From: Actinomycetota bacterium
GTDB lineage: Bacteria > Actinomycetota > Actinomycetes > Actinomycetales > Microbacteriaceae
DNA length: 64,000 nt
Direction: 5' to 3'
Assembly: GCA_020160915.1 (NCBI GenBank)
Contig: JAIUPK010000003.1
Coordinates: forward strand, 456,751-520,750
The notes under the pieces: generated by a model
What the model was told of the DNA's origin: nothing
Seen by the model: the letters and a program-made list of their open reading frames with translations, nothing else
The model's database searches: none
In this document: positions 22,087 through 47,432 of the stretch, piece by piece
Position numbering within the stretch: position 1 is the stretch's first letter
Layout: every line of letters begins with the position of its first letter
Made by a program: the position numbers and the translations under genes

Positions 22087-22329
22087 CTAGTCGGTCTCGA
22101 TCACGGCGATGTCGTTGCCGGTGTGGATCTCGTCGTCGACCCCGGCGAGCTGCTGGACCAGGCGGCCCGTCGCGGTGCTCTCGATGTCGACGATCGCCTT
22201 GTCGGTCTCGACGCGCAGGAGCACCTGGCCCTCAGCGACGGGATCGCCGACCGCGATCAACCACTCGACGACATAGGAGTCGTCGATGGCCTCGGATACT
22301 CGCGGCATGACGACGCGTGCCTCGCTCAT
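22087..22329 (-). CDS. Stand-alone lipoyl (biotinyl/lipoyl attachment) domain protein
   Basis: This 80-residue protein is only a lipoyl domain. It begins MSEARVVMPRVSEAI, and the lipoylation site is the Lys in VETDKAIVDIES (near residue 44). A normal E2 would continue with a peripheral-subunit-binding domain and an acyltransferase core; both are absent. The ATG overlaps the end of the E1 alpha gene by four bases, so it is the third gene of an E1 beta-E1 alpha-lipoyl operon. It should carry the acyl or hydroxyalkyl group made by E1, handing it to a partner not encoded here. Confidence 0.9.
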   Translation of the reverse strand: MSEARVVMPRVSEAIDDSYVVEWLIAVGDPVAEGQVLLRVETDKAIVDIESTATGRLVQQLAGVDDEIHTGNDIAVIETD

Positions 22330-23351
22330 GAGTCTGCCTTTCGGGTGGTGGGGGTCCAGATGTTGTTGAACATGTCGGTGACGACCGGGTCCGGCAGTGC
22401 CTGGACTACCTCGATGACCTCGTCGAGCGCAGCGCCGACCGAGCTCTCGAGCCGGGCGAGCTCGTCCGCGGAGGCCCCACCAGCGACGAGCTCCTCGCGA
22501 GCTCGCTTGACCGGGTCGCGCTCCTGCCAGTACTCGAGCTCGCCCGCTGGACGGTACGGCGCGGTGTCCGCGCGCGAGTGGCCGGCGAAGCGGTAGGTCT
22601 TCGCCTCGACGAGGGTCGGTCCCCCGCCGGTACGCGCGCGCCCGATGGCCCTGGCGAGCGCGGCTCGCGTGGCCGTGACATCCATGCCGTCGACGACTTC
22701 AGCGGGCATGGCGTATGACGCGGCGCGCAGGTGCAGGTCTTCGATGGGGGTCGTCAGGTTGATGCGGCTGTATTCGCCGTAGACGTTGTTGTCGCACAGG
22801 AAGACGACCGGCAGCTTCCAGATCGCCGCAAGGTTGAGCGACTCGTGGAAGGCGCCGATGTTCGTCGCGCCGTCGCCGAAGACCGCGACGGCGACACTGT
22901 CGTCGCCCTTGTACTGGAAGGCGAGCGCTGCGCCCGCCGCGACCGGGAGGCCGGCCCCGACGATCGCGAAGGTCGGCAGCAGGCCGATGTCGTCGTCACT
23001 CACATGCATCGAACCACCGAGGCCGCCCGTGGAGCCCTCGGACTTGCCCATGATCTCGGCGAGCACCGCACGGGGGCTCATGCCGAGCGCGAGCGCCATG
23101 GCGTGCCCGCGGTAGGTGGCGGTCACAAGATCGGTGGGGCGCAACTCGGCGGCCAAGCTCACGGCGAGCGCCTCCTGCCCCATCGCGAGGTGCGTGGTGC
23201 CGTGGATGGCGCCCGTGGCGAAGAGCGCGTTGAGGCGTTCTTCAAAACCACGGATCTCGAACATGCGCTCGAGGCGCGCTGTGGCGTCGTCGGCGAGAAC
23301 CTTGCGGCGCTCGACGGAACTACGGGACACAGACAGGGCGGTGTCGGTCAC
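22326..23351 (-). CDS. Thiamine-diphosphate 2-oxoacid dehydrogenase E1 component, alpha subunit
   Basis: This 341-residue alpha subunit of an E1 complex resembles AcoA and branched-chain or pyruvate dehydrogenase E1 alpha. HLAMGQEALAVSLAAEL is near the start, and the ThDP/Mg motif begins GDGATNIGAFHESLN and ends at LCDNN. The His-containing loop YRFAGHSRADTAPYR follows. E1 decarboxylates a 2-oxo acid (or splits acetoin) and passes the product to a lipoyl group. The GTG at 23351 overlaps the end of the beta gene. The surrounding sugar-catabolism regulon suggests a substrate derived from a sugar acid (inference). Confidence 0.93.
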   Translation of the reverse strand: MTDTALSVSRSSVERRKVLADDATARLERMFEIRGFEERLNALFATGAIHGTTHLAMGQEALAVSLAAELRPTDLVTATYRGHAMALALGMSPRAVLAEIMGKSEGSTGGLGGSMHVSDDDIGLLPTFAIVGAGLPVAAGAALAFQYKGDDSVAVAVFGDGATNIGAFHESLNLAAIWKLPVVFLCDNNVYGEYSRINLTTPIEDLHLRAASYAMPAEVVDGMDVTATRAALARAIGRARTGGGPTLVEAKTYRFAGHSRADTAPYRPAGELEYWQERDPVKRAREELVAGGASADELARLESSVGAALDEVIEVVQALPDPVVTDMFNNIWTPTTRKADS

Positions 23352-24364
23352 TTGCTCAACCCTTCGAGGACCCACCACGGGGCGGGGACGGTTCCGGTGG
23401 ACTGGTACTGCGTCAGCTGGCGAGCGATCTCGTCGGGCTGCGGAAGGTAGCGGCTCTCCAGCGCCCGGCTGTAGGGCACGGGAACGTTGGGAGTCGTGAT
23501 GCGGAACGGCGCGGCCGAGAGGCTGGAGAACAACTCGCGCGTGACGGCGGCGACGATTTCGCTGCCCCATCCGCCCGACTCCGGTGCCTCTTCCACCACC
23601 ACGAGCCGGTGAGTCTTTGCCACCGAATCGAGCACAGTCGTGCGGTCCCAGGGGGCGAGCGTGATGAGGTCGATGATCTCGGCGTCGATGCCGGATGCCT
23701 CGACCGCCTCCAGCACGGAGGTGCGTAGCTGCCCCATCGTGACGATGGTGACGGCGGTGCCCTGGCGCACGACTTCGGCCTTGCCCAGTTCCACGAGCCC
23801 GGCAGCTCCCCGCTGCACCTCGCCACGCACGGCGTAGAGGTTGCGGGGCTCGAGCACCATCGTCGGTCCGGGCGATTGGATGGCCGCCCGCAGGATCCCG
23901 TACGCGTTCTGCGGCGTGCTCATGGTCACGACGGTGAGGCCCGGTGTCGCGGTCACCCAGTTCTCGAGGGTCTGACTGTGCTGCGAGCCGAAGCCAGTGC
24001 CGCTGCCGACCGACGCGCGCACCGTGAGCGGCACCGAGAGCTGGCCCTTGCTCAGGTAGTGCATCTTGGCTGCGCCAGTGACGAGCTGGTCGAGTGCGAC
24101 GCCCAGGAACTCCATGAACATGATCTCGATGACGGGCCGCAGGCCCGCGATCGCGGCCCCGACGCCCGCCCCCGTGAACGCCATCTCCGAGATCGGGGTG
24201 TCGCGCACGCGGTTGGGTCCGAACTTGTCGAGAAGGCCCTCCGAGGTCTTGAAGGGGCCGCCAGCGACGGCGATGTCCTCGCCCATCACCATGACACTGG
24301 GATCGGCTTCCATCTCGTCCTCGAGCGCGGCGACGATCGCCTGCCGGAAGCGCATCTGAGTCAC
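23348..24364 (-). CDS. Thiamine-diphosphate 2-oxoacid dehydrogenase E1 component, beta subunit
   Basis: This 338-residue beta subunit (transketolase-like) begins at a GTG (24364), with AAGGGG eight bases upstream. It shows MVMGEDIAVAGGPFKTSEGL, then TPISEMAFTGAGVGAAIAGLRPVIE in parts, and the C-terminal domain with EEAPESGGWGSEIVA. It forms a heterotetramer with the alpha subunit. It is the first gene of the minus-strand operon, and a TGGAAWCGWTTCCA-type operator lies 20 bases upstream of the start, so it belongs to the local LacI regulon. Confidence 0.94.
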   Translation of the reverse strand: MTQMRFRQAIVAALEDEMEADPSVMVMGEDIAVAGGPFKTSEGLLDKFGPNRVRDTPISEMAFTGAGVGAAIAGLRPVIEIMFMEFLGVALDQLVTGAAKMHYLSKGQLSVPLTVRASVGSGTGFGSQHSQTLENWVTATPGLTVVTMSTPQNAYGILRAAIQSPGPTMVLEPRNLYAVRGEVQRGAAGLVELGKAEVVRQGTAVTIVTMGQLRTSVLEAVEASGIDAEIIDLITLAPWDRTTVLDSVAKTHRLVVVEEAPESGGWGSEIVAAVTRELFSSLSAAPFRITTPNVPVPYSRALESRYLPQPDEIARQLTQYQSTGTVPAPWWVLEGLSK

Positions 24365-24398: not shown

Positions 24399-24477
24399 GG
24401 ATATGCCCCGACCCCCGGCTCGTCAACTGAACGTGGGCGTCGTCGTTGACCAGTTCGAGCCAACGTCGGTAGAGTTC

Positions 24478-24491
24478 TGGAAACGATTCGA
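24478..24491. promoter_or_regulatory. LacI-type operator b (TGGAAACGATTCGA)
   Basis: This palindrome lies 35 bases upstream of the reductase gene at 24527 and about 90 bases from operator a, in the shared divergent promoter region. Two sites at this distance could allow looping or separate control of the two directions. Confidence 0.75.
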
Positions 24492-24526: not shown

Positions 24527-25459
24527 GTGATTGACGTGGCGGTGATCGGCGATGGCCAGCTCGCCCGCGGCGTCGCCTCACGGCTGTCGACACGGGCCGA
24601 CGTGCACCTGAGAGGGCCCGCTCCGCGCGAGCTCATCCCCGTTGTCGTGGGCTCCGGTGCCGACGTCGTGGTCATCGCGACCACCACGAGGCTGGCCGAT
24701 GTGGCGGGCCACATCGAGGACGCGGTACGCGCCGGCTCGAACGTGCTCGTCTCGGCCGAGGAGTGCGCGTACCCGTGGGCGGTCGATGCCGACCTTGCCG
24801 GCCGACTGGATGGGCTCGCCCTGCAGAACGGTGTGACGATCCTCGGGTGCGGGCTCAATCCCGGGTTCGTGTTCGACGCGCTCGTGCTGACCCTGCTCGG
24901 CGCCGGCGGGCTTCCCACGTACATCTCGGTCGAACGCACCGTGGATGTGTCGGCGTTCGGCCCCGCCGTGCGTGCGCGGCTCGGGGTCGGTGTGCCCGAG
25001 ACGGAGTTCGCGCAGGGGATCGGGGAGGGGAGCATCCTCGGCCATGCGGGGTTCCCGCAGTCCATGGCGATCGTCGCCGACGCGCTCGGGGTCGTCATCG
25101 ACACGATCACGACGAGCATCCGGCCCACCGTCGAGGCCGGCCTGACCGTGGGCTTCGTGCAGGAGTACGTCGCGCTGGTCGCGGGCGACGAGTGGTTCCG
25201 CGCGCGGTTCGTGGGGCACCTCCGCCCCGGCACGGCGGGCCTCTCCCCGCACGACGTCATCGAGATCGTCTCCGATGGAGCGCCCCTGCGCTGCACCGTC
25301 GATCCCGGAATTGGCTCGCAGGCCGGCTCCCAGGCACTCATCGCCAATTCGATCGATCGCGTGGTCAGCGCGCCACCCGGATGGCGCACCGTCGCCGAGC
25401 TCGAGGCGGCGCATCCGCGAACCGACAACCCAAGCCCCCCACGAACACCGATCAGATAG
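24527..25459 (+). CDS. NAD(P)-dependent dehydrogenase, dihydrodipicolinate reductase / 2,4-diaminopentanoate dehydrogenase-like
   Basis: This 310-residue protein has an N-terminal Rossmann fold (VAVIGDGQLARGVA) followed by a C-terminal domain with GCGLNPGFVFDALVL and a stretch like that of 2,4-diaminopentanoate dehydrogenases. Known relatives act on amino or keto acids. Nothing else in the region concerns diamino acids, so the substrate here is probably different; an imine, keto or lactone intermediate of the local pathway is an inference. It opens a plus-strand operon with an enolase-superfamily gene and an SDR gene. The start is a GTG. Operator b lies just upstream. Confidence 0.75.
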   Translation: MIDVAVIGDGQLARGVASRLSTRADVHLRGPAPRELIPVVVGSGADVVVIATTTRLADVAGHIEDAVRAGSNVLVSAEECAYPWAVDADLAGRLDGLALQNGVTILGCGLNPGFVFDALVLTLLGAGGLPTYISVERTVDVSAFGPAVRARLGVGVPETEFAQGIGEGSILGHAGFPQSMAIVADALGVVIDTITTSIRPTVEAGLTVGFVQEYVALVAGDEWFRARFVGHLRPGTAGLSPHDVIEIVSDGAPLRCTVDPGIGSQAGSQALIANSIDRVVSAPPGWRTVAELEAAHPRTDNPSPPRTPIR

Positions 25460-27377: not shown

Positions 27378-27391
27378 TAGAATCCTTTCCA
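27378..27391. promoter_or_regulatory. LacI-type operator c (TAGAATCCTTTCCA)
   Basis: This sits in the 71-base gap between the SDR 1 gene and the Cys-rich protein gene, 44 bases before the ATG at 27435. It departs from the consensus at the second base and in the centre (CC instead of CG), so it may bind more weakly. It suggests a separate promoter for the downstream four-gene unit. Confidence 0.65.
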
Positions 27392-27434: not shown

Positions 27435-28550
27435 ATGACAGACACGATGGGGTTCTCTGACATACTGCAGCGCCGTGTGCGACTCGGTAGCTGGCAGGAC
27501 CAGAAGGTAGCGACCTACGACCTGATTCTCGACGCGCTGGCCACCGAAGAGTGGTCGAACGCCGCGGAGCTCGCGTCCTATTTCGTCGACGAGGCAGCGG
27601 TGTGCTGGCAGCTCTATCGCCAGTGGCTCGCCGACCTCGAGGGGTTCCTGCGCGACGAGGGCACGTCCGCGGAGGACCTGGAGCGCATCCGCCAGACCCT
27701 CATCGACCTGACGCCGCTTCCCGATGGCTCGCAGTTCAACACGTTCGCGATGTGGGAGAAGTTCAAGGACCTCATCGCATCCGTCGTGGCGGCTGCCGAG
27801 GCGCACGACGCGCCACGCGCGAGCGAGCTCATGGCCGAGGCCAAGGAGATCTGGCGCCAGACCCATGACCGCGACGTCGACAAGACCTACTTCTACATGA
27901 GCGAGACGGCCCGCCGGTACGGCGACGACGCGATCCCGCGCATGTACGAGCGCGTGCTGGTTCCGCTGTTCGCCTGGCGCTACGAGAAGTTCGATATCGA
28001 CAAGCACCCGTGGGACGAGGGCCTTGAGACCCTCATGTACGTCTCGTGCGAAGCCATGCGCGGTCACCTCAGCGGTCCCGAGCGCAACGGCAACTTCGAG
28101 CTCGAGGAGCTCGCCGACCGCTTCATCCTCCGTTTCGACGCGTGCGGCTCAGGCGGCCGCACGCTGCGTGGCGACTGGATCGAGGGCACCCCCGCTCGCA
28201 TGGAGGCGCCGTACAACTTCCGCGTCTCCGAGGAGGAACGCGACTGGAACCACTACCAGAAGGGCGTCTGCCTGTACTGCGCCCACTGCGTGATCCTCAT
28301 GGAACACATGCCCATGGACCGCTTCGGTTACCCGGTGCGCGTCGTCGACCCGCCGATCTACCCCGACACGAACAAAGACCCGGCGGCACGCCAGAAGTGC
28401 CAGTGGACGATGTTCAAGGACCCGACGACGGTTCCCGAGGAGATGTACACGCGCAGCGGGCGCACCAAGCCGACCGAGTTCGGCTCGCGCGCCCACAACG
28501 TCGTCGACCTTCCCGATCCGACCGTCTTCGGGATGCCCGGCAGCGGATGA
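27435..28550 (+). CDS. Uncharacterised protein with Cys-x2-Cys-x2-Cys motif
   Basis: I do not recognise this 371-residue soluble protein with confidence. The first half is helical and acidic (FAMWEKFKDLIASV, ETARRYGDDAIPRMYERV). The second half contains RFDACGSGGRTLRGDW (Cys 237), a VCLYCAHCVILMEHMPMDRFGYPVRVVDPP region (quoted in part: CLYCAHC, Cys 279, 282, 285) and Cys 322 in QKCQW. The Cys and His pattern suggests a metal or catalytic-thiol site; it faintly recalls L-2-amino-thiazoline-4-carboxylate hydrolase-type proteins. The start is the ATG at 27435, which has no SD at normal distance. TATCGT about seven bases before it could be a -10 box of a leaderless mRNA. It opens a four-gene operon with an MDR and two SDRs. 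Confidence 0.7.
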   Translation: MTDTMGFSDILQRRVRLGSWQDQKVATYDLILDALATEEWSNAAELASYFVDEAAVCWQLYRQWLADLEGFLRDEGTSAEDLERIRQTLIDLTPLPDGSQFNTFAMWEKFKDLIASVVAAAEAHDAPRASELMAEAKEIWRQTHDRDVDKTYFYMSETARRYGDDAIPRMYERVLVPLFAWRYEKFDIDKHPWDEGLETLMYVSCEAMRGHLSGPERNGNFELEELADRFILRFDACGSGGRTLRGDWIEGTPARMEAPYNFRVSEEERDWNHYQKGVCLYCAHCVILMEHMPMDRFGYPVRVVDPPIYPDTNKDPAARQKCQWTMFKDPTTVPEEMYTRSGRTKPTEFGSRAHNVVDLPDPTVFGMPGSG

Positions 28551-29605: not shown

Positions 29606-30366
29606 CCTGGCGCAATGATGCGGGGCTTTCCGGCAAGAGTGTCGTCGTCACCGGCGCGGCGGGAGGAATCGGACGGTCGGTGACCAGGGCGTTCGCGGAG
29701 GCCGGCGCGCACGTGGTAGCCGTCGACCTCCCCGGCTCGCCCGTCGCAGAGGTCGTCGCCTCCCTGCCGGGTGGACCGCACCTCGGGCTCGAGGCGAACC
29801 TCCTCGACCTCTCCAGCCATGCGGGGATCTTCGAGCGGGCCAACGAGCTCGCACCCTTCGCGGCGCTCGCCCACCTCGCCGCGGTGCTGCGGCGCGCCGT
29901 CACCGTCGACGACGTCACGGAAGAGGACTGGGATCTCCAACTCGACGTGAACCTGAAGGTGACGTTCTTCCTGGGTCGCACCGCGCACTCGGCCTTCCGC
30001 GCCGCGGGAACGCCCGGCGCGATCGTCAACTTCACCTCCCAGGGCTGGTGGACCGGCGGCTTCGGCGGCTCGGTCGTGTACAACGCGAGCAAGGGTGGTG
30101 TGACCACGCTCACGAAGGGGCTTGCGCGATCGTTCGCCGCCAGTGGTGTGCGCGTCAATGCCGTGGCTCCCGGCGGGGTCGACACTCCCATGATGAACGA
30201 GGGAATGTCGCCCGAGGCGATGGCCTCCTTCCTCTCGATGGTGCCGCTCGGCCGCCTCGCCCAGACCGATGAGCTCGCCGGTGCCGTCGTCTTCCTCGCG
30301 TCGGATGCCGCCTCGTTCGTGACCGGTTCGGTCATGAACGTCTCCGGCGGCCAGCTCATGTACTGA
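29602..30366 (+). CDS. Short-chain dehydrogenase/reductase (SDR) 2
   Basis: This 254-residue SDR has VVVTGAAGGIGRSVTRAF at the NAD(P) site and VYNASKGGVTTLTKG at the active site, and ends NVSGGQLMY. It is a near relative of the SDR at 26593 and shares the shifted Ser region (FTSQGWWTGG). The duplicates have probably diverged to act on successive or alternative intermediates (inference). The gene overlaps the alcohol dehydrogenase gene by four bases and is followed after 31 bases by SDR 3. Confidence 0.9.
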   Translation: MTWRNDAGLSGKSVVVTGAAGGIGRSVTRAFAEAGAHVVAVDLPGSPVAEVVASLPGGPHLGLEANLLDLSSHAGIFERANELAPFAALAHLAAVLRRAVTVDDVTEEDWDLQLDVNLKVTFFLGRTAHSAFRAAGTPGAIVNFTSQGWWTGGFGGSVVYNASKGGVTTLTKGLARSFAASGVRVNAVAPGGVDTPMMNEGMSPEAMASFLSMVPLGRLAQTDELAGAVVFLASDAASFVTGSVMNVSGGQLMY

Positions 30367-31169: not shown

Positions 31170-31191
31170 GAAACGTAACTAGGAGTTGGCA

Positions 31192-38469: not shown

Positions 38470-38483
38470 TGGAAAGGGTTCCA
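38470..38483. promoter_or_regulatory. LacI-type operator f (TGGAAAGGGTTCCA)
   Basis: Both half-sites TGGAA and TTCCA are perfect; the centre is AGGG instead of the consensus WCGW. It lies 26 bases before the binding-protein start at 38509 and should control the eight-gene transport and CoA-ester operon. The rest of the 368-base divergent gap shows nothing further that I can name. Confidence 0.7.
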
Positions 38484-39516: not shown

Positions 39517-41013
39517 ATGTCGCAGCTGACCCTGGCACTGCGCGACATCAGTAAGTCGTTCGGGGGCGTTGAGGTTCTCCACAAGGTGAGCCTCAACGCC
39601 CTCGGCGGCGAAGTTCTCGCCCTCCTGGGCGAGAACGGCGCCGGCAAGTCGACACTGGTGAAAATACTCGCGGGAGACTACACGCCCGACGGCGGCGAGG
39701 TCGTCGTCGATGATGTTCCCGCACCCGGCCTCAACCCCCGCACCGCGCGCAAGCTCGGCATCCGGATGATCCATCAGGAATTCCAGGATGCCGGAGCCCT
39801 CACGGTCGCGGAGAACATCAGCCTCGGCCGGTGGCCGACTGCCGGAGGGCTCGTCTCGTGGCGGCGCCTCAAGCAACGCGCGGATGACGTACTCGGGCAG
39901 ATGGGGGTCGATATCGATCCCGGCGCCCTGGTGAGCTCCCTCAGGGTCGGAGAGCGCCAGGTCGTCGAGATCGCCCGAGCTCTGGCGGACGACGCCAAGC
40001 TCCTGATCCTCGACGAACCGACCGCAGCCCTGTCGCAGCAGGAGGTGGACCGCCTCTTCGAGTGGGTCCGCCGGCTGCGCGACAACGGGGTGTGCATCGT
40101 CTACATCACGCACCGTCTCGACGAAGTCTTCGAACTCGCCGACCGCGTGCAGGTGCTTCGTAACGGCGATGTCGCCCTCACCTCACCGACCTCCGACGTC
40201 ACCCGTCGCCAGCTCGTCGAGGCCATGGTCGGTCGCGACATCGGCGAGGTCTCGCGCCCCGCCAGCGCAGGCGCCGGGGCCGACGGCGAACCCATGATCA
40301 CGATCGACGACCTTCATGTCGACGACCAGGTCGCAGGCCTCACGCTCACGGTGCGCAAGGGTGAGGTGGTGTGCCTCTACGGCAAGCTCGGCAGCGGCAC
40401 TACGCAAGTGGCCGAAGTGTGCTTCGGCATCCGCAAGCCCACGGGCGGCACCCTCGACATCGCGGGCACCAGCGGCTTTCCTTCGGCGCCGACCGCGGCC
40501 ATCCGTCGCGGCGTCGGCTACCTGCCACCCGACCGCAAGCGCGAGGGCGCGTTCATGAGTCGCTCGGTGATCGAGAACCTCGCCGCGGCCTCGTGGGGCA
40601 AGCTCGCCATCGGCAACCTGTTCGTGACCGCCGGGATGGAGAAAACCGCATACTCGCGCTGGTCGTCGAAGCTCGGCATCAAGTCGGCCGACCCCGCGAA
40701 CCAGCAGATCTCGCAGCTCTCCGGTGGCAACCAGCAGAAGGTCATGCTGGCCCGCTGGCTCGAGCGCACCTCGAATCCCCTCGTGCTCGTCGAGCCCACT
40801 CGCGGCGTCGATGTGGGCGCACGGCAGGAGATCTACGCGGCTATCCGCGACCTTGCCGCCGAGGGGCAGGCAGTACTCGTGGTGACGTCCGACTACGAGG
40901 AGGCAGTGCAACTGTCAGACCGCGTCGTCGTGATGCAACGCGGGCAGCAAGTCGCGGAGTTCGACGGCAACGACGTCACCGCCCAGAATCTAACCATTGC
41001 AGCAGGAGGCTGA
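39517..41013 (+). CDS. Sugar ABC transporter ATPase (RbsA-like, two nucleotide-binding domains)
   Basis: This 498-residue protein has two fused ABC domains. The first has Walker A GENGAGKST, signature SLRVGERQVVEIARAL (variant) and LLILDEPTAAL. The second has a degenerate Walker A (YGKLGSGTTQV) but a full signature LSGGNQQKVMLARWL and VEPTRGVD, the normal pattern for RbsA/MglA-type sugar importers. The gene starts at ATG 39517, six bases after the binding-protein stop, and the permease gene follows immediately. Confidence 0.96.
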   Translation: MSQLTLALRDISKSFGGVEVLHKVSLNALGGEVLALLGENGAGKSTLVKILAGDYTPDGGEVVVDDVPAPGLNPRTARKLGIRMIHQEFQDAGALTVAENISLGRWPTAGGLVSWRRLKQRADDVLGQMGVDIDPGALVSSLRVGERQVVEIARALADDAKLLILDEPTAALSQQEVDRLFEWVRRLRDNGVCIVYITHRLDEVFELADRVQVLRNGDVALTSPTSDVTRRQLVEAMVGRDIGEVSRPASAGAGADGEPMITIDDLHVDDQVAGLTLTVRKGEVVCLYGKLGSGTTQVAEVCFGIRKPTGGTLDIAGTSGFPSAPTAAIRRGVGYLPPDRKREGAFMSRSVIENLAAASWGKLAIGNLFVTAGMEKTAYSRWSSKLGIKSADPANQQISQLSGGNQQKVMLARWLERTSNPLVLVEPTRGVDVGARQEIYAAIRDLAAEGQAVLVVTSDYEEAVQLSDRVVVMQRGQQVAEFDGNDVTAQNLTIAAGG

Positions 41014-41014
41014 C

Positions 41015-42004
41015 GTGACAGTTCCACTCGACACCGCCATCGAACCGGTCGAGGACCGAAAGCCCACGAGGAGTCGGCGACGCATTCCCGAGACCGCCGT
41101 ACTCGCGGGCGTGCTTCTGGCTCTGGCGATCTTCTTCTCCACCCAGTCAGAGTTCTACCTGACCCCGAACAACCTGCTCAACATCCTCGTGAGCGCCTCG
41201 GTCATCGGCATCATCGCCGCCCCCGGCACGCTACTGCTGGTCGCGGGCCAGTTCGACCTCTCGGTCGGCTCGGGCGCCGCCTTCATCGGCGTCGTGATGG
41301 CGTGGGCGACAGCACAGTGGGGCGTCCCGACGGGCGTGCTGCTCGCGATCGTCGCGGGCCTGCTCATCGGCATGGTCAACGGCTTCGCAGTGACCGTGCT
41401 CGGGATCAACGCGCTCATCACGACCCTGGCCACCCTCGCCATCCTGCGCGGGCTCGGTCAGGTGCTGGCCGGTGGGCAGACGCTGCTCCTGCCGGGGTTC
41501 AACGACCTCGGAAACGCGCGCCCGTTCCTGAACATCCCGGTGCCCGTGCTCGTGTTCGCGGCGGTCGTCGTCATCACGGCGCTCGTCATGAAGTTCACGG
41601 TCTTCGGTCGCTCGATGTACGCGATCGGCGCGAACCCCATCGCCGCGCGTCTCGCGGGCATCCGCACCAAGACGGCGATCTTCGGCGGATTCCTGCTCTC
41701 TGGTGCCGCCGTCGCCATTGGCGGCCTCATCCTCGTGTCGCAGCTCGGCGCGGCCTCCCCCAACGCCGCCTCCGGCCTCGAGCTCTCGGTCGTGACAGCG
41801 GTCATCCTCGGCGGCGCGAGCCTCGCTGGCGGCCGCGGCACGATCGTGGGAACACTGCTCGGCGTGCTGATCCTCGGCACCTTGAACAACGGCCTCACGC
41901 TCATGAACATCAACTCGTTCTGGCAGGACGTCGCCCGTGGCGTGCTCCTGCTCGCCGCTGTCGGCTTCGACCAGCTGCGCCTGCGCCTCACCGGCGACAA
42001 GTAA
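41015..42004 (+). CDS. Sugar ABC transporter permease (RbsC-like)
   Basis: This 329-residue permease of the ribose type has about nine transmembrane helices. It shows PGTLLLVAGQFDLSVGSGAA and VTVLGINALITTLATLAILRGL in parts, and AVILGGASLAGGRGTIVGTLLG, the classic RbsC blocks. The start is the GTG at 41015, five bases after AGGAGG; an in-frame TTG further upstream lies inside the ATPase gene. It completes the importer. Confidence 0.95.
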   Translation: MTVPLDTAIEPVEDRKPTRSRRRIPETAVLAGVLLALAIFFSTQSEFYLTPNNLLNILVSASVIGIIAAPGTLLLVAGQFDLSVGSGAAFIGVVMAWATAQWGVPTGVLLAIVAGLLIGMVNGFAVTVLGINALITTLATLAILRGLGQVLAGGQTLLLPGFNDLGNARPFLNIPVPVLVFAAVVVITALVMKFTVFGRSMYAIGANPIAARLAGIRTKTAIFGGFLLSGAAVAIGGLILVSQLGAASPNAASGLELSVVTAVILGGASLAGGRGTIVGTLLGVLILGTLNNGLTLMNINSFWQDVARGVLLLAAVGFDQLRLRLTGDK

Positions 42005-42018
42005 GGGAAGGATCCACC

Positions 42019-43080
42019 ATGACAATTCGAGTCGGAGTGATCGGTGCCGGCAGCTGGACGGTCGCATCCCACCTGCCCAACCTCGCGCGGCACGCGGATG
42101 TCGAGTTCGTCGGCGTCTCGCGCAAGGGACCTGAGTTGCTCAAGAAGATCCAGGACGAGTACGGGTTCGCCGTGGCATCCGAGGACTACCGAGACGTGCT
42201 CGCTGAGGGCGTCGACGTCGCCATCGTCGCGAGCCCCTCGGGCCTGCACTTCGAGCACGCCCTCGCCGCCCTCGAGTCGGGTGCGCACGTCATGTGCGAG
42301 AAGCCCGTCACCATCGACCCGGCGAGCGCCTGGACGCTCGCGCAACGGGCCGATGAGCTCGGCAAGGCATTCGTCGTCTCGTTCGGCTGGAACTACAAGC
42401 CGATGATCCAGAAGGCCAAGGCGATGATGGATGCCGGTGGCATCGGCACCCTCGAGCACATGACCGTTCACATGGCGTCCGCGACGCGCGAACTACTGTC
42501 GAACACCGGCGCGTACCCGGGAGCAGCCCCCGAGGCCGTTCCCGACCAGCGCACCTGGACAGACCCCAGCCTTTCCGGCGGCGGTTACGGTCAGGCCCAG
42601 CTCACCCACGCCCTCGGGCTCGCCTTCTGGCTCACCGGCGCCCGCGCGACCGGTGGGTTTGCTTCGATGAACGCGCCGCTGAACGCGCCCGTCGAGCTGC
42701 ATGACGCGATCGTTCTCAATTACGAGGGTGGCGGCATCGGTGTGCTCTCGGGCGGGTCTGCTCACCTGGGCGTCAACGGCAACAAGCACGCCCTCGAGGT
42801 GCGCGCGATCGGCAGCGAGGGCCAACTTCTCGTGGATGTTGAGCGCGAGGCTGTCTGGCTGTTCCGCAATGGCGAGGAGACCAAGGTCGAGCTCGTCGAC
42901 GGCGAGGGCGCGTACGACTGCATCGGCCCGATCGACGCCGTGCTGAGCGCCGCCCGGGGTGAGCAGTTCATCAATCAGTCGCCCGCAGAACTCGGTGCCC
43001 GTGTCGTCGAGGCGCTCGACATCGCCTACCGCAGCGCAGCCTCCGGACAGTTCGAGCGTCGCGCCAGAATAGAGCCATGA
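42019..43080 (+). CDS. Gfo/Idh/MocA-family oxidoreductase 2
   Basis: This 353-residue NAD(P)-dependent sugar dehydrogenase has a Rossmann start RVGVIGAGSWTVASHLP, the VMCEKPVTIDP motif and a C-terminal domain with GGYGQAQLTHALGLAFWL (His in the catalytic region). GGAAGGA lies six bases before the ATG. It sits between the permease and the CitE-like gene, so it may act first on the imported sugar or its derivative. It has no close pair with the other Gfo/Idh protein at 12228. Confidence 0.93.
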   Translation: MTIRVGVIGAGSWTVASHLPNLARHADVEFVGVSRKGPELLKKIQDEYGFAVASEDYRDVLAEGVDVAIVASPSGLHFEHALAALESGAHVMCEKPVTIDPASAWTLAQRADELGKAFVVSFGWNYKPMIQKAKAMMDAGGIGTLEHMTVHMASATRELLSNTGAYPGAAPEAVPDQRTWTDPSLSGGGYGQAQLTHALGLAFWLTGARATGGFASMNAPLNAPVELHDAIVLNYEGGGIGVLSGGSAHLGVNGNKHALEVRAIGSEGQLLVDVEREAVWLFRNGEETKVELVDGEGAYDCIGPIDAVLSAARGEQFINQSPAELGARVVEALDIAYRSAASGQFERRARIEP

Positions 43081-43901
43081 CCGCGCGACACCTCCGCTCG
43101 CACCTGTACGTCCCCGCCGACAAGCCCGGCATGCTCGGTAAGGCCCAGGAGCGGGGCGCTGACGCGATCATCCTCGACCTCGAGGACGCGGTAGCCCCCT
43201 CGGCGAAGGACTCGGCCCTTGAGGCGGTGGTCGCTTTCGCCGCGCTCCCGCGCGGCAGTGCGGAACTCTGGGTGCGCGTCAACACCGGGCAGCGCGGGCT
43301 CGACGAGATCGGTGCGCTCTGCCCGCTCGGCCTCGACGGGGTATGGCTGGCGAAGGCAGAACCGGGTGAATGGTTCGACGCTGCGGTCGCCGCACTAGTC
43401 GCCGCCGGCACGAAGGTCGGGATCCTCGTCGAGAGTGCACGTGGGCTCGTCGGGATGCCCGTCTTCTCCCCCGTTCCGTCCGAGTCGCTCGCTCAGCTCG
43501 GTGAGGTCGACCTGCGGGCCGACCTGCGCATCAGGGACGCGTCGGAAGAGGCGATGGTGCCCTACCGCGCGAGAATCGTCATGGAGACCGCGATCCGCGG
43601 CCTCGCACCGGCTGTGGGACCGGTCGACCCGAACTTCACCGACCTCGTCGCGTTCCGCGCGTCGACGGTACTGCTGCGCGATCGAGGATTCGGCTCCCGC
43701 GCGTGCATCCATCCGGCCCAGGTTGCCATCGTCAACGAGGTGTTCACGCCCGACGAGGCGGAGCTCGAGGACGCCCGCCGCATCGTCGGGGCATTCGAGA
43801 CCGAGACCGCCGCCGGCCGCGGGGCCTTCTCGATCGACGGCACCATGGGCGACGCCGCGACCGTGCGCTGGGCCCGATCCCTGCTGGCGACCCACGGATG
43901 A
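43077..43901 (+). CDS. CitE-like CoA ester lyase (HpcH/HpaI family)
   Basis: This 274-residue TIM-barrel protein is of the citrate lyase beta-like/malyl-CoA lyase group. It has SHLYVPADKPGMLGKA, the ADAIILDLEDAVAPSAK block (Asp/Glu metal and CoA region), Arg in LWVRVNTG, and late SRACIHPAQVAIVNEVF, all typical of CoA ester lyases. Such enzymes split a 3-hydroxyacyl-CoA, for example citramalyl-CoA or malyl-CoA, into acetyl-CoA or another acyl-CoA and a 2-oxo acid or aldehyde. Start and stop overlap neighbours by four bases. Its place in a sugar operon is unusual. Confidence 0.9.
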   Translation: MTARHLRSHLYVPADKPGMLGKAQERGADAIILDLEDAVAPSAKDSALEAVVAFAALPRGSAELWVRVNTGQRGLDEIGALCPLGLDGVWLAKAEPGEWFDAAVAALVAAGTKVGILVESARGLVGMPVFSPVPSESLAQLGEVDLRADLRIRDASEEAMVPYRARIVMETAIRGLAPAVGPVDPNFTDLVAFRASTVLLRDRGFGSRACIHPAQVAIVNEVFTPDEAELEDARRIVGAFETETAAGRGAFSIDGTMGDAATVRWARSLLATHG

Positions 43902-44878
43902 CGCCCTCTTCCCCGCCGTTCGCCGAGGACCTCGTGCCCGGGGTCGCGCTCGATCCCGCTCCCGACATCACCGTGGATGAAGGACTCGCCGCCCAGTACC
44001 TCGCCCTCAGCGGCGACCAGCTGGGCCCGACCCTGAGCGCACCGCTCTCGTTCGCGCTCACCGGACGACCTGAACGCCTGGCGAATCCCGCGCTGGTTAT
44101 CAGCCTCTCGATCGGCCAGTCGACCGTCGCGACCGGACGAGTGATCGCGAACCTGCGCTACGACAACCTCGTGCTCGAGCGGCAGGTGCATGTCGGCGAG
44201 ACCCTGCGCACCGTCGTCACCCCGGTCGCGGCCGCGTGGACTCGTTCGGGCACCGACCGGGCCAAGGTGCTGCTCGACATGTCCGTGACCACTCACGACG
44301 GCGAGCGCATCGCGCGGTACCAGCGGCTCGCGCTGCTTCCGGTCCGCGACGCAGAAGTGCTCGTCGCGGGCGACATTCCCGGCGCAGGGGATGCGCCGCC
44401 GCTGTCCCACTACTGGAGTGTCGTACCTTCGGGGTGGTCGAATCCGGCCGGCGTCACGTCGCGGCCGCTCGCCCTCGGCTCACCGTGGACCGACCCGCTC
44501 GCCGACACCGTGTCCTCTGCGCGAGAGCTCGTGCGCCTCACCCAGAACCGCGCGGCGGCCCACCGCGACGCGCGGGTGGGAAGCGGCGGCCAGCGGCTCG
44601 TGTTCGGCGGCCACACCGTCGCCCTCGCCCAGGCCTCTCTGTCGCGCCTCGCACCCGACCTCCTGACCGTACTCGCGTGGCGCAGCTGCGACCACCTCGC
44701 CCCGGTCTTCGAAGACGACACGCTGTCGTTCGAGATCGTGATCGATGCCGTGGAGCGGGGACGAGGATTCCGAATCGCGGACGCGACAGTGCGTGCGACA
44801 GCGCACCGCGGCGAGACCAAGTCCACGCCAGTACTCGAGTGGCGGCCCGTGCTGCTGCTGGCCGGGGAGGCATCATGA
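43898..44878 (+). CDS. MaoC-like double hot-dog dehydratase/hydratase
   Basis: This 326-residue protein appears to be a tandem hot-dog fold. The first domain contains DEGLAAQYLALSGDQ and the second NRAAAHRDARVGSGGQRLVFGG followed by HTVALAQASLSRL. Members hydrate enoyl-CoAs such as mesaconyl-CoA or itaconyl-CoA, or dehydrate hydroxyacyl-CoAs. Position between a CitE-like lyase and a CoA-transferase supports an acyl-CoA hydration step feeding the lyase. The ATG at 43898 overlaps the upstream stop; earlier open frame is a shadow. Confidence 0.82.
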   Translation: MTPSSPPFAEDLVPGVALDPAPDITVDEGLAAQYLALSGDQLGPTLSAPLSFALTGRPERLANPALVISLSIGQSTVATGRVIANLRYDNLVLERQVHVGETLRTVVTPVAAAWTRSGTDRAKVLLDMSVTTHDGERIARYQRLALLPVRDAEVLVAGDIPGAGDAPPLSHYWSVVPSGWSNPAGVTSRPLALGSPWTDPLADTVSSARELVRLTQNRAAAHRDARVGSGGQRLVFGGHTVALAQASLSRLAPDLLTVLAWRSCDHLAPVFEDDTLSFEIVIDAVERGRGFRIADATVRATAHRGETKSTPVLEWRPVLLLAGEAS

Positions 44879-46053
44879 GCAATCCGGTGACCCTGCTCGC
44901 GGGCATCCGCGTCGTCTCGCTCGAGCAGTACATCGGGGCGCCGTACTGCACCTCGATTCTCGCCGACGCGGGCGCCGAGGTCATCAAGATCGAGTTGCCG
45001 GGCGTCGGCGATCCGCGCCGCTCGTACGACCCGAAGCGCACCGACGCCGACGGCACGCTGAGCGGCGGGTTCGCGTCGTACAACCGGGGCAAGAAGTCCG
45101 TCGAGCTCGACCTCACCACCCCGGCCGGACGCGAGCGGCTCGGGGACCTGCTCGCGGGCGCCGACGTGCTCGTCTCCAACCTGCGGCCGGGCTCGCTCGC
45201 CCGCTACGGGCTGGGGCGTGACGTGATCGCGGAACGCTTTCCCGCCCTCATCGTGTGCGAGATCTCGGGCTTCGGCCAGACCGGGCCGTACGCGGCTTGG
45301 CCGGCCTTCGACTCGGTGATCCAGGCGATGAGCGGCCTTAGCAGCCTGTTGGGGGCCACCGCCGACTCGCCACCCGGTCTCGCCCCGATGGCCACGATGG
45401 ACATCCTCGGCGGGGTCTACGCTGCGGTGGGAATTCTCGCCGCGCTCGTGTCACGACAGGCCACGGGCCGTGGCACGCACGTGGACGCCTCGATGTACGA
45501 CATCGGCGCGGCCTTCCTCGAGCGACCGCTCACGTTGCACGAGTTCACGGGCGACGTGCCCTCGCGCGGTGCCGACCGGTTCAGCCCCGTGGGCAGCTTC
45601 CGGGCCGGCGACGGTGGCTGGGTGTCGATGGTCATCCCCACCGACGAGATGTGGCGACGTTGCTGCATGGCGATCGGCCGCGAGGACCTCGTCGCCTCCC
45701 CCGAACTCGACACGGTACTCAAGCGCGCGGAGCGGATGGCAGACCTCGTGATCCCGGCGCTCGAGCACTGGGCGGCCCCGCTCACGGCACCCGAGGCCGC
45801 GCGGGCGCTTCGCGACGCGGGGCAGCCTGCGGGAGTGGTGCAGACCATCGCCGACGTTCGGCACGATCCGCACCTCGAGGAGCGCGGGCTGTTCCAGGTC
45901 GTGGACGACCCGCGCGCCGTGCACGAGGACGGCACACCGTTCCGGTTGCCGCGGCTGCCCCTGTTGTTCGACGGCGTGGGCGCCGTGCCCGGTCCGATCC
46001 CCGCCCTCGGCGAGAATACCGACGACGACTTCGACCGACAGGACAGGCCATGA
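44875..46053 (+). CDS. CaiB/BaiF-family (class III) CoA-transferase
   Basis: This 392-residue protein begins with VVSLEQYIGAPYCTSILADAGAEVIKIE in parts and has the SFASYNRGKKSVELDL and VLVSNLRPGSLARYGL regions typical of formyl-CoA transferase and related enzymes. The usual catalytic Asp is likely the one in HVDASMYDIGAAF. It moves CoA between carboxylic acids, here probably activating a pathway acid with succinyl-CoA or acetyl-CoA as donor (inference). It overlaps both neighbours by four bases. Confidence 0.92.
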   Translation: MSNPVTLLAGIRVVSLEQYIGAPYCTSILADAGAEVIKIELPGVGDPRRSYDPKRTDADGTLSGGFASYNRGKKSVELDLTTPAGRERLGDLLAGADVLVSNLRPGSLARYGLGRDVIAERFPALIVCEISGFGQTGPYAAWPAFDSVIQAMSGLSSLLGATADSPPGLAPMATMDILGGVYAAVGILAALVSRQATGRGTHVDASMYDIGAAFLERPLTLHEFTGDVPSRGADRFSPVGSFRAGDGGWVSMVIPTDEMWRRCCMAIGREDLVASPELDTVLKRAERMADLVIPALEHWAAPLTAPEAARALRDAGQPAGVVQTIADVRHDPHLEERGLFQVVDDPRAVHEDGTPFRLPRLPLLFDGVGAVPGPIPALGENTDDDFDRQDRP

Positions 46054-47432
46054 CCCCGCGCCGCGTAGGCATCATCCACCCCTACTGGAGCTTCTGGGAG
46101 TCGGCAGTCGAGGGTGACTTCGCCGCGGATCGGCGCGAGCTCGGGGCGGTCGGCACCGCAACCATCGAGTCGAGCGGGGCGACCGTGGCCTGGCAGGTGA
46201 CTGTGCAGCCCGGCGACGACATCGACGCGCTCGCCGCGGATCTCGCGAGCGACATCGACGCGCTCGTCATCGTGTCGACGATGGCCGCCTCGCCCGGAGC
46301 GGTGCTCGAGCTGCTGGCCCGGTTCGAGCGCACCCCGCTCGTGATCTGGGCGGCGCACCTCGGCCTGGCCGTTGACGCAGACCTGAGCCACACGGGCATC
46401 ACGCTGCGAGGCGGCACCGTCGGCAGCCCCATGATCGGCGCGGCCCTCACCCGGCAGGGCAGGCCGTACGACCTCGTCGCTGGCGAGATCACGGATGCCT
46501 CGGCCATCGGTGCCGCCGTGCGTCGCGCCAGCGCCGCAGGCGCCGTGCGGCGCGCGCGACTGGGGGTCGTGGGATCCACGATCCCAGGCTACGAGTGGGC
46601 GCGGGTTCCCGACGAACGGCTCGCGTCGCTCGGTATAGAGGTCGTGGCGAGCGCGCCAGAAGAACTTGCGGGGCGCATCCGATCGGTCACGCCGGAGGCG
46701 GTGGGCGCCGCCCGCGCACGGCTCGATGAATTCAGCGTCGACGGCGACGTCGAGCCCGACGACCTGGAGCGCGCGCTGCGCTACTCGGTGGCCCTGGAGT
46801 CGCTCGTCGACGAGGGCCGACTCTCTGCGGGCACACTCAACTGCCACGTCGCACAGCTGCGCCTCGACCCCGCTATCGGGTCGGCCCCGTGCTTCGCGCT
46901 CGGGCTCTCCACGTCGAACGGCGTGCCCTGGACATGCACGGGAGACATCGCAACCTCTCTCGCGATGCTCCTGGTGAGCTCGCTCGGCGCCCCCACGCTC
47001 TACCACGAGATCGAGGCGCTCGACGAGGTGTCGCACGAGGCGATCCTGGCCAACTCGGGCGAGCACGACTCCCGCTTCGACACGGCCACGCCCCGGCGCA
47101 TCATCACCAACCCGTGGTTCCCGCGCGAGCGCGCCACGGCCTCGGCGCTGTTCTCGATCGCTCCCGGCCCCGCGAGCCTCGTGGGGGTCGCGTCGGGCTC
47201 CGACGGCGCACTCACCATTGTCGTCGCCGAGGGTCGCTTCACCGAGCGCACGGCTCCCGACTCCGGCACGGTGAACGCCGCGTTCGAGTTCGCCTCCGGC
47301 CCGATCGCCGAAGCCTGGCAGCGCTGGGGAAGCGCGGGGGTGGGCCACCACTCGTGCGCGACCGACCGTCATGTAGCTGACGACCTCCGGGTCATCTGCG
47401 AGCACCTCGGGCTCGGGTTCGTTCTGGTCTAG
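46050..47432 (+). CDS. L-fucose/L-arabinose isomerase-like protein
   Basis: This 460-residue protein has the layout of the FucI/AraA superfamily. The N-terminus GIIHPYWSFWE and repeated Rossmann-like domains are followed by a C-terminal barrel with NCHVAQLRL, WTCTGDIATSLAML, YHEIEALDEV and late GVGHHSCATDRH. In characterised isomerases one metal-binding Glu lies in AEGD or CEAD; here the motif is CTGD, so Glu is replaced by Thr. It may still bind substrate or do different chemistry. It is the last gene of the transport/CoA operon and overlaps the CoA-transferase gene by four bases. Confidence 0.78.
   Translation: MTPRRVGIIHPYWSFWESAVEGDFAADRRELGAVGTATIESSGATVAWQVTVQPGDDIDALAADLASDIDALVIVSTMAASPGAVLELLARFERTPLVIWAAHLGLAVDADLSHTGITLRGGTVGSPMIGAALTRQGRPYDLVAGEITDASAIGAAVRRASAAGAVRRARLGVVGSTIPGYEWARVPDERLASLGIEVVASAPEELAGRIRSVTPEAVGAARARLDEFSVDGDVEPDDLERALRYSVALESLVDEGRLSAGTLNCHVAQLRLDPAIGSAPCFALGLSTSNGVPWTCTGDIATSLAMLLVSSLGAPTLYHEIEALDEVSHEAILANSGEHDSRFDTATPRRIITNPWFPRERATASALFSIAPGPASLVGVASGSDGALTIVVAEGRFTERTAPDSGTVNAAFEFASGPIAEAWQRWGSAGVGHHSCATDRHVADDLRVICEHLGLGFVLV

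What the first reader, a model, noticed from the sequence alone, without database searches (positions are those of the whole stretch)
22087..47432. Candidate undescribed CoA-linked sugar (or sugar acid) degradation island of about 25 genes
The sequence shows, in one regulated block, an importer, a mutarotase-like protein, two Gfo/MDR-type and four SDR-type dehydrogenases, two lactonase-family hydrolases and two sugar acid dehydratases. These fit non-phosphorylative sugar oxidation. But the expected ending enzymes (2-keto-3-deoxy acid aldolase, FAH hydrolase, KDG kinase) are absent. Instead there is a 2-oxoacid dehydrogenase E1 pair with a lipoyl protein, a CitE-like lyase, a MaoC-like hydratase and a CaiB-type CoA-transferase. 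I infer that the keto-deoxy acid is turned into acyl-CoA esters and split by the CoA lyase, a route I cannot match to a known sugar pathway. Substrate and step order are not shown.
Basis: partly seen in the sequence, partly recalled or inferred. Interest (0 to 1): 0.82.

Follow-up and report, generated by a model that had tools for sequence, protein, structure and literature searches.

The report
Mobile sugar-degradation regulon with unknown enzyme
A block of about 26 bacterial genes that seems to be switched by one sugar-type repressor, and whose core recurs in distantly related soil and sponge bacteria, looks like an undescribed way to break down an unusual sugar without phosphate, and it includes a protein family with no known relatives.

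Summary
The island at 22087-47432 is real: gene-for-gene conserved, with the same edges, in two Salinibacterium genomes, and set between different neighbours in this genome. I count 26 genes. Seven LacI-type operator-like sites (TGGAAnCGnTTCCA) precede its transcription units; 7 of the 9 such sites (<=2 mismatches) in the 2.93 Mb genome lie here. So the E1/lipoyl, sugar-acid and CoA genes probably share one regulon. DHDPS- or FAH-type terminal enzymes and sugar kinases are absent from it.

CitE and MaoC were found beside none of 54 other P2unk loci. The wider core is different: a 371-aa family without Pfam or PDB-fold match (P2unk), an arabinose-isomerase-fold protein, dehydrogenases, lactonases, two enolase-family dehydratases, a rhaM mutarotase, and E1-alpha/beta with a free lipoyl domain. 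Core genes with the same operator recur in Acidimicrobiia and Thermoleophilia MAGs; Chloroflexota loci share genes but showed no operator.

Best reading: non-phosphorylative oxidation of a 6-deoxyhexose-like sugar to a 2-keto-3-deoxy acid, then oxidative decarboxylation to an acyl-CoA; in Salinibacterium-type islands a CoA-transferase/hydratase/lyase trio follows. Substrate, step order and the P2unk reaction are unproven.

The parts
22087..22329 (-). free-standing lipoyl domain, 80 aa
   Evidence: PF00364 59 bits; motif ETDKA
22326..23351 (-). 2-oxoacid dehydrogenase E1 alpha (GTG start overlaps E1 beta stop)
   Evidence: PF00676 230 bits; relatives
23348..24364 (-). 2-oxoacid dehydrogenase E1 beta; start probably GTG 24364, since an operator-like site lies inside the longer ORF that begins at 24463
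   Evidence: PF02779/PF02780
24385..24398 (.). LacI-type operator-like site (E1 operon / DAP_DH_C divergent region)
24478..24491 (.). LacI-type operator-like site
24527..25459 (+). oxidoreductase with 2,4-diaminopentanoate dehydrogenase C-terminal domain
   Evidence: PF19328 91.7 bits
25466..26596 (+). MLE1, enolase-superfamily acid-sugar dehydratase (galactonate dehydratase-like)
   Evidence: PF13378/PF02746
26593..27363 (+). SDR1 dehydrogenase
27378..27391 (.). LacI-type operator-like site before P2unk
27435..28550 (+). P2unk, 371 aa, family without Pfam match, no PDB fold match, conserved Cys/His residues
28547..29605 (+). MDR zinc-type dehydrogenase
29602..30366 (+). SDR2 dehydrogenase
30398..31105 (+). 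SDR3 dehydrogenase
31156..31169 (.). LacI-type operator-like site before MLE2
31186..32358 (+). MLE2, enolase-superfamily dehydratase (KxK motif); close relatives solved as 3no1/4h83/3msy
32386..33273 (+). Amidohydro_2 lactonase (L-fuconolactonase-like)
   Evidence: PF04909; NF052480 113.5 bits, below cut-off 400
33270..34337 (+). phosphotriesterase-family (PTE) lactonase-like hydrolase
   Evidence: PF02126
34312..35043 (-). SDR4 dehydrogenase
35040..35510 (-). glyoxalase-family protein
   Evidence: PF00903
35521..35534 (.). LacI-type operator-like site before glyoxalase-SDR4
35577..36743 (-). GDSL esterase
   Evidence: PF13472
36740..37768 (-). LacI-family repressor
   Evidence: PF00356/PF13377; N-terminal region compared
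37826..38140 (-). L-rhamnose mutarotase family (rhaM)
   Evidence: PF05336 80 bits
38210..38223 (.). LacI-type operator-like site before rhaM
38470..38483 (.). LacI-type operator-like site before RbsB operon
38509..39510 (+). RbsB-type sugar-binding protein
   Evidence: PF13407
39517..41013 (+). RbsA-type ATPase (AraG-like)
40997..42004 (+). RbsC-type permease (AraH-like)
42019..43080 (+). Gfo/Idh/MocA dehydrogenase
   Evidence: PF01408
43077..43901 (+). CitE-type lyase (RipC-like)
   Evidence: PF03328 64 bits; NF038242 119.5 bits, below cut-off 375
43898..44878 (+). MaoC-like hydratase (weak assignment)
   Evidence: PF01575 23.7 bits, below cut-off 27
44875..46053 (+). CaiB-type (class III) CoA-transferase
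   Evidence: PF02515 345.8 bits; NF041294 214 bits, below cut-off 700
46050..47432 (+). arabinose/fucose-isomerase-fold protein
   Evidence: E 7e-14 to L-arabinose isomerase; TM 0.89

Best explanation
This is a transferable, LacI-controlled regulon for non-phosphorylative catabolism of a 6-deoxyhexose-like aldose or close analogue. Shown here: gene content, conserved order in three genomes, shared operator-like sites, and recurrence of core genes in distant bacteria. Inferred: RbsABC imports the sugar (a GDSL esterase may first deacylate it) and rhaM interconverts its anomers. Gfo/SDR/MDR enzymes oxidise it to lactones, the Amidohydro_2 and PTE hydrolases open them, and MLE1/MLE2 dehydrate the acids to 2-keto-3-deoxy acids, which an SDR or MDR may oxidise further. 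Instead of a pyruvate aldolase, FAH hydrolase or KDG kinase, the carbon leaves through a dedicated 2-oxoacid dehydrogenase (E1 alpha/beta plus a free lipoyl domain), which would decarboxylate the 2-oxo acid to a 3-hydroxyacyl- or 3-oxoacyl-CoA, borrowing E2 and E3 from a housekeeping complex. In the Salinibacterium-type island CaiB, MaoC and CitE then move CoA, hydrate or dehydrate, and cleave to acetyl-CoA plus an aldehyde or 2-oxo acid. P2unk and the isomerase-fold protein would act together on a step that is not known.
For: Gene types. Gene-for-gene synteny with the same edges in two Salinibacterium genomes. Operator-like sites: 6 island sites among 7 window matches at <=3 mismatches versus 0.99 expected, 0 of 100 shuffles reaching 7; 7 of 9 genome sites at <=2 mismatches in the island (the pattern was read from the island, so the independent tests are the relatives): 8 of 21 and 7 of 14 sites of the two Salinibacterium genomes lie in their islands, and 57 sites >=16 bits occur in 54 distant loci versus 2.15 expected and 0 in 312 kb of control loci. 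E1-alpha tied to P2unk: 39 of 45 genomes versus 1 of 198 in the order, and 3 of 4 close-P2unk genomes versus 14 of the other 392 in the phylum draw. Gfo-U1-E1b order in 9 loci and stand-alone E2 catalytic domains in relatives. rhaM, fuconolactonase-like and isomerase fold point to sugars of the fucose/rhamnose/arabinose kind.
Against: No island protein passes a curated NCBIfam cut-off in the rows shown (rhaM was not in those calls; SDRs and RbsA had only their best 25 of about 200 families listed). No E2 acyltransferase or E3 in the island (the 5 E2 domains of the genome lie elsewhere). CitE, MaoC and also GDSL are in 0 of the 54 other loci, DAP_DH_C and glyoxalase in 2 each. 6 of 45 P2unk genomes lack an E1-alpha at the threshold, and 14 of 392 phylum genomes without close P2unk have one. 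26 of 54 loci, including all five Chloroflexota loci, show no operator-like site >=16 bits. MaoC is below its Pfam cut-off. FAH-type hydrolases exist elsewhere in the genome (10 matches). The TIM-barrel U1 that sits between Gfo and E1b in relatives is missing from this genome. Operators are sequence matches, not measured binding.
Confidence: 0.43

Rival explanations
1. Inositol-like logic: a Gfo/Idh enzyme makes a cyclic or open ketone, a TIM-barrel dehydratase makes a 1,2-dione or acyloin, and the TPP enzyme (E1) cleaves a carbon-carbon bond next to a ketone, as in acetoin dehydrogenase or IolD, passing the acyl group to the lipoyl domain.
For: Gfo-U1(AP_endonuc_2)-E1b is the gene order in 9 loci (Pfam of U1); the lipoyl protein's best NCBIfam match is the acetoin dehydrogenase E2 (61 bits, cut-off 307); the MDR's second-best family is scyllo-inosose 3-dehydrogenase (123 bits, cut-off 450).
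Against: U1 is absent from the window's genome, although Gfo and E1 are there; two acid-sugar dehydratases and two lactonases fit sugar acids better than cyclitols; the family matches are far below cut-offs.
Confidence: 0.2
2. A conventional non-phosphorylative L-fucose/L-rhamnose-type pathway whose terminal hydrolase or aldolase lies elsewhere in the genome; E1 and the CoA trio serve side products.
For: Ten FAH-family matches and one DHDPS match elsewhere in the genome; enzyme types equal those proposed for fucose/rhamnose in SAR202 (PMC10444878, passages).
Against: No such gene is in the island, and the only two operator-like sites outside it (contigs C2 and C4) lie on contigs without a FAH match; E1-alpha co-occurs with the core in 39 of 45 genomes.
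Confidence: 0.17
3. The trio CaiB-MaoC-CitE works like itaconate/mesaconate degradation (Ict-Ich-Ccl) on a branched C5 dicarboxylate that the island makes from a branched sugar.
For: Same three activities as the itaconate pathway (PMC12290011, passages); CitE best matches RipC/Ccl and CaiB best matches succinyl-CoA:mesaconate CoA-transferase; an MmgE/PrpD protein sits in two Solirubrobacteraceae core loci.
Against: All matches are far below the equivalog cut-offs; rhaM and isomerase fold do not suggest a branched furanose; the trio was not found in the wider core.
Confidence: 0.12
4. The CitE-MaoC-CaiB genes are passengers inserted into the RbsABC-Gfo operon and serve an unrelated acid.
For: 0 of 54 other loci have CitE or MaoC; CitE (76/60% to the two Salinibacterium islands) and MaoC (74/61%) are less conserved than E1 alpha (93/75%), P2unk (95/76%) or MLE2 (93/83%).
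Against: CaiB (88/79%) is as conserved as E1, and clear sugar-island genes such as GDSL (74/55%), DAP_DH_C (70/58%), PTE (85/65%) and the isomerase-fold gene (82/64%) diverge as much. The trio keeps its place between Gfo and the isomerase-fold gene in all three islands with overlapping or near-touching frames, in an operon headed by an operator-like site.
Confidence: 0.08

Closest known systems
Non-phosphorylative L-fucose/L-rhamnose pathways (SDR dehydrogenase, lactonase, acid-sugar dehydratase, keto-deoxy-acid dehydrogenase, FAH hydrolase or aldolase; steps recalled), incl. the SAR202 proposal (PMC10444878, passages seen)
   Same: same upper-half enzyme superfamilies; a rhaM-type mutarotase
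   Different: no FAH hydrolase, DHDPS-type aldolase or kinase in the island; E1/lipoyl, P2unk, isomerase-fold protein and CoA trio added
Itaconate degradation cluster ict-ich-ccl (PMC12290011, passages seen)
   Same: CoA-transferase, hydratase and citramalyl-CoA-lyase-like gene side by side
   Different: divergent proteins below the curated cut-offs, embedded in a sugar regulon
2-oxoacid and acetoin dehydrogenase complexes
   Same: E1 alpha/beta pair and a lipoyl domain with the ETDKA motif
   Different: lipoyl domain free-standing; no E2 acyltransferase or E3 in the island
L-arabinose isomerase / L-fucose isomerase family
   Same: predicted fold (TM 0.89 to AraA)
   Different: 13-18% identity to the arabinose isomerases listed; within two genes of P2unk in 24 of 54 loci; activity unknown

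Membership tests
Non-phosphorylative L-fucose/L-rhamnose pathway | dehydrogenase, lactonase and acid-sugar dehydratase of the right superfamilies | tested here: met
   superfamily level only
Non-phosphorylative L-fucose/L-rhamnose pathway | curated equivalogs (L-fuconolactonase, L-rhamnonate dehydratase) | tested here: not met
   113.5 vs 400 bits and 110.7 (MLE1) or 81.6 (MLE2) vs 393 bits
Non-phosphorylative L-fucose/L-rhamnose pathway | terminal FAH hydrolase or DHDPS-type aldolase in the gene set | tested here: not met
   none in island; only elsewhere in the genome
[quoted passage not shown]
   CaiB and CitE clear, MaoC below Pfam cut-off
Itaconate degradation (ict-ich-ccl) | lyase passes RipC/Ccl equivalog cut-off | tested here: not met
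   119.5 vs 375 bits
2-oxoacid dehydrogenase complex | E1 alpha/beta with TPP domains and lipoyl domain | tested here: met
2-oxoacid dehydrogenase complex | E2 acyltransferase and E3 encoded with it | tested here: not met
   absent in island; 5 E2 domains elsewhere in genome; E3 not sought genome-wide; a stand-alone E2 domain is Pfam-confirmed near the core in relative L087
2-oxoacid dehydrogenase complex | substrate is a 2-oxo acid | not testable with these tools
   needs enzyme assay
L-arabinose/L-fucose isomerase family | fold | tested here: met
   Foldseek E 1.8e-31, TM 0.89
L-arabinose/L-fucose isomerase family | metal ligands and isomerase activity | not tested
   ligand positions only recalled, not superposed

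The most novel reading that the evidence does not exclude
A new sugar route in which the 2-keto-3-deoxy acid is oxidatively decarboxylated to a 3-hydroxyacyl-CoA before the carbon chain is split, so that acetyl-CoA arises from a retro-Claisen lyase and not from pyruvate. An enzyme family with a fold not seen in the PDB (P2unk), working with an isomerase-fold partner, performs a step unknown in sugar catabolism. The operator-marked core occurs across several classes of bacteria.
Probability: 0.22. Interest if true: 0.85.

Novelty: new variant of a known kind. Interest (0 to 1): 0.6.

Why it matters
Core genes recur in MAGs of Acidimicrobiia, Thermoleophilia and, in part, Chloroflexota, groups of which some (SAR202, PMC10444878) are proposed to consume dilute sugars, and they come with a shared operator-like site that predicts the regulon. 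P2unk has a confident model (mean pLDDT 92.6) and no Foldseek match in the PDB. A named strain, Salinibacterium soli WY-16, carries the whole island and offers a direct way to assign a new enzyme, a new sugar route and the function of an enolase group with solved structures but no specific function in their PDB names (3no1/4h83/3msy).

Tried and rejected
Mutarotase reading of the last gene (46050-47432): rejected, it has the arabinose-isomerase fold; the mutarotase is the small rhaM gene. P2unk as a known family: the window's member has no Pfam match at E<=10 and the six members together give six different families, one member each, best E 0.087; no PDB sequence match at E<=0.1; best Foldseek E 0.55. 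Only the PDB was searched by fold; a library of predicted cellular structures was not on hand and the second aligner was not installed. Ligand of RbsB from solved homologues: four matches with generic or D-ribose names. Relatives of SDR3 and MDR in the PDB: only generic names such as FabG, hydroxyacyl-CoA dehydrogenase, glucose dehydrogenase or alcohol dehydrogenase. Papers joining E1/lipoyl with such gene sets: none seen in the listings. These cover openly licensed papers only, and several listings were partial: 12 of 55, 12 of 18, 10 of 255. tRNA or direct repeats at the island ends: one tRNA-Trp at 20558, not at the edge, and no direct repeats of 12 bases or more within each end region; the two ends were not compared with each other. 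SAR202 paper seen as passages, itaconate paper as passages, all others as listings. Wholly recalled: pathway steps of fucose/rhamnose, inositol and acetoin routes, enolase and CitE signature residues, and the AraA metal ligands. Not done: whole-genome searches for MaoC and CaiB in relatives; CitE was searched in 19 genomes only.

Full report
WHAT IS THERE. The window lies in a 2.93 Mb genome; the window has 67% G+C. The closest match for the marker protein used here is a Salinibacterium MAG at 95%. Between a housekeeping block (aspartate aminotransferase-like gene, NusG) and an ABC exporter/two-component block lie 26 genes, 22087-47432. Minus strand: lipoyl, E1 alpha, E1 beta. Plus: DAP_DH_C oxidoreductase, MLE1, SDR1, P2unk, MDR, SDR2, SDR3, MLE2, Amidohydro_2, PTE. 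Minus: SDR4, glyoxalase, GDSL, LacI, rhaM. Plus: RbsB, RbsA, RbsC, Gfo, CitE, MaoC-like, CaiB, isomerase-fold protein. Several neighbours overlap by four bases, as in operons.

A DISCRETE, TRANSFERABLE ISLAND. tblastn of 25 island proteins (rhaM was found later) against relatives finds all 25 in the same order and orientation in Salinibacterium sp. ACE_ACT13 (L038 plus L106; P2unk 95%, E1 alpha 93%, CitE 76%, MaoC 74%, CaiB 88%, isomerase-fold 82%; one additional RbsB gene) and in S. soli WY-16 (L039 plus L107; 76, 75, 60, 61, 79, 64%). rhaM is there too (cluster U0). Strong tblastx similarity to the window ends at 22081 and 47512, or 22093 and 47488, so the neighbours differ from the window's; the two Salinibacterium genomes share left neighbours with each other (clusters U35-U37). 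P2unk is found in 1 of 297 genomes of the order, the window's own. In the phylum it is found in 10 of 396, of which 4 including the own are close (58% or more) and 6 are remote, 29-32%.

A SHARED OPERATOR-LIKE SITE. The intergenic regions hold a near-palindrome TGGAAnCGnTTCCA of the LacI-operator kind at 24385, 24478, 27378, 31156, 35521, 38210 and 38470. The pattern was read from these regions, so its enrichment in the window is partly by construction. With three mismatches allowed the window holds 7 matches, 6 of them in the island, versus 0.99 expected; 0 of 100 shuffles reach 7. A weight matrix built from six of the sites scores all seven at 18 bits or more and the next place in the window at 11.3. 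In the whole genome 9 sites match with two mismatches at most, 7 of them in the island. More independent are the relatives: in the two Salinibacterium genomes 8 of 21 and 7 of 14 sites lie in the island (my count from positions). The backward control pattern gives 5, 9 and 1 sites in the three genomes. In 54 more distant loci the matrix gives 57 sites of 16 bits or more versus 2.15 expected from Markov-resampled sequence, in 28 of 54 loci, and 0 in 312 kb of 17 control loci. Caveats: many of these loci are close relatives or overlap on one contig, 7 of the 57 sites lie inside called genes, and none of the five Chloroflexota loci (L042, L062, L063, L069, L072) has a site. Of the LacI relatives the helix-turn-helix can be read fully in L038, L039, L077 and L129, and in part in L056 and L088; these keep SSVSR, while the other frames were cut or started wrongly in my gene calls. 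The site at 24385 suggests that E1 beta starts at GTG 24364, after a GAAGGGG stretch, and not at 24463.

THE WIDER CORE IS NOT THE CoA TRIO. One genome-contig scan with the P2unk alignment gave 56 loci: two Salinibacterium, other Actinomycetales, many Acidimicrobiia, Thermoleophilia/Solirubrobacteraceae, Euzebyaceae, Chloroflexota and Acidobacteria MAGs. For the 54 loci other than the two Salinibacterium ones, the fetched stretch (at most 10 kb each side, often cut by contig ends) holds, at the identity thresholds set: P2unk 44, isomerase-fold gene 36, MDR 32, SDR3 20, Gfo 18, AH2 16, E1 alpha 15, SDR4 15, RbsC 15, MLE2 14, RbsB 14, SDR2 13, E1 beta 13, RbsA 13, PTE 11, MLE1 10, lipoyl 10, LacI 8, SDR1 6, DAP_DH_C 2, glyoxalase 2, GDSL 0, CitE 0, MaoC 0, CaiB 0. 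rhaM-like genes are in 21 of the 56 loci. CaiB relatives of 32-34% occur in 2 loci, and one of 36% stands next to an MLE2-E1b-E1a-lipoyl set in another stretch of the REEB473 genome (L128). The isomerase-fold gene lies within two genes of P2unk in 24 of 54 loci, divergently in 23. In whole genomes the CitE orthologue was found only in the window's genome (100%) and the two Salinibacterium genomes (75 and 60%) among 19 genomes searched; the next best is 40%. MaoC and CaiB were not searched genome-wide.

E1 AND P2unk. E1 alpha relatives at E<=1e-84 are in 39 of 45 P2unk-bearing genomes (44 of the 56 loci plus the window's genome were given, and the 12 left out lie in assemblies already included, judged by accession). 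They are in 1 of 198 genomes of the window's order, its own; the best other there is 5e-83. The threshold was set, and the order is not phylogenetically matched to the mostly acidimicrobial carriers, so I added a phylum-wide draw: 17 of 396 genomes pass. Among the handles that one search had shown with close P2unk, 3 of 4 pass (G000, G558, G625; not G489). Of the 6 with remote P2unk, 0 pass, and of all others 14 of 386. So the association is strong but neither exclusive nor complete. Outside the P2unk stretches E1b-E1a-lipoyl stands beside Gfo, DAP_DH_C, MLE2, rhaM, LacI or Rbs genes.

THE E1/LIPOYL SYSTEM. The lipoyl protein is 80 aa with the motif ETDKA. The island has no E2 acyltransferase; the genome has five elsewhere, two of them near other E1-alpha-like genes on contigs 1 and 6. 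In relatives a stand-alone E2 catalytic domain is clustered near the core in L041, L074 and L087 (Pfam-confirmed only for L087). The order Gfo-U1-E1b occurs in nine loci, at least two pairs of which overlap on one contig; U1 is a xylose-isomerase-like TIM barrel. U1 is absent from the window's genome at E<=1e-20.

TWO UNEXPLAINED PROTEINS. P2unk (371 aa) has no Pfam match and no PDB sequence match. Its model has mean pLDDT 92.6 and pTM 0.90, mainly helical followed by a cysteine-rich part. Foldseek against the PDB finds nothing with E<=0.001 (best 0.55). Invariant residues over 42 members include W140, R141, D145, R146, E206, R209, H211, C237, S239, C279, C282, C285 and C322; H144 and H284 are nearly invariant. 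A metal or catalytic cysteine site is likely (inference). Remote relatives of 25-29% sit beside E1-E2-E3 genes on Rhodococcus jostii pRHL3 and beside SDR and glutamine-synthetase-like genes on two other Rhodococcus plasmids. The last gene has the fold of L-arabinose isomerase (TM 0.89 and 0.83, 13-18% identity; profile E 7e-14).

WHAT IT PROBABLY DOES. rhaM, the fuconolactonase-like AH2, two acid-sugar dehydratases (MLE1 with KIG and SHAW, MLE2 with KxK and HHEE; the meaning of these motifs is recalled), seven dehydrogenases and a sugar importer fit non-phosphorylative oxidation of a 6-deoxyhexose-like sugar. The product class, a 2-keto-3-deoxy acid, is a 2-oxo acid, the normal substrate class of E1. 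Decarboxylation would give a 3-hydroxyacyl-CoA (or a 3-oxoacyl-CoA after C4 oxidation). A CitE-type lyase could then release acetyl-CoA, and MaoC and CaiB could act on unsaturated or free-acid forms. The SAR202 study (PMC10444878, passages) proposes non-phosphorylative fucose/rhamnose pathways ending in pyruvate and lactate or lactaldehyde from paralogues of the same families; its text has 0 occurrences of 'mutarotase' and 'dehydrogenase E1'.

NOVELTY. The superfamilies are known. The combination, the regulon and P2unk were not met in the listings (openly licensed papers only; several listings partial). I file it as a new variant of a known kind (non-phosphorylative sugar catabolism), with one protein family of unknown fold class and function.

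Noticed in passing
L087:11050-12702, also L082, L084, L085, L086: A 550-aa reading frame near P2unk holds both a lipoyl ligase (LplA-B) catalytic domain and a radical-SAM lipoyl-synthase-like domain (Pfam for L087 only), an apparent LipB-LipA fusion; the cluster is in five loci.
   Followed up: partly
L080:10262-11347 and L073: An MmgE/PrpD-family protein (Pfam for L080 only) stands beside MLE1 in two Solirubrobacteraceae core loci; in Pseudomonas such a protein belongs to the itaconate/methylsuccinate cluster.
   Followed up: partly
L023 (R. jostii pRHL3), L021, L022: Remote P2unk relatives on Rhodococcus plasmids, next to E1-E2-E3 and AMP-ligase genes or SDR and glutamine-synthetase-like genes, suggest a wider family used outside sugar catabolism.
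   Followed up: partly
L128:9951-12008 and L127:16635-18425: Two large proteins (685 and 596 aa) near core genes in one Actinomycetales MAG have no Pfam match at E<=0.01.
   Followed up: no
L106:3277-4152: The Salinibacterium ACE_ACT13 island carries an additional RbsB-type binding protein (40% to the window's) before the conserved one.
   Followed up: no
L043, L044, L045, L048, L050-L055, L059-L061, L066, L078: Fifteen core loci, mostly acidimicrobial MAGs, hold a second, more distant isomerase-fold gene (about 30%) near the first; the one in L053 matches Pfam's Arabinose_Iso_C.
   Followed up: partly
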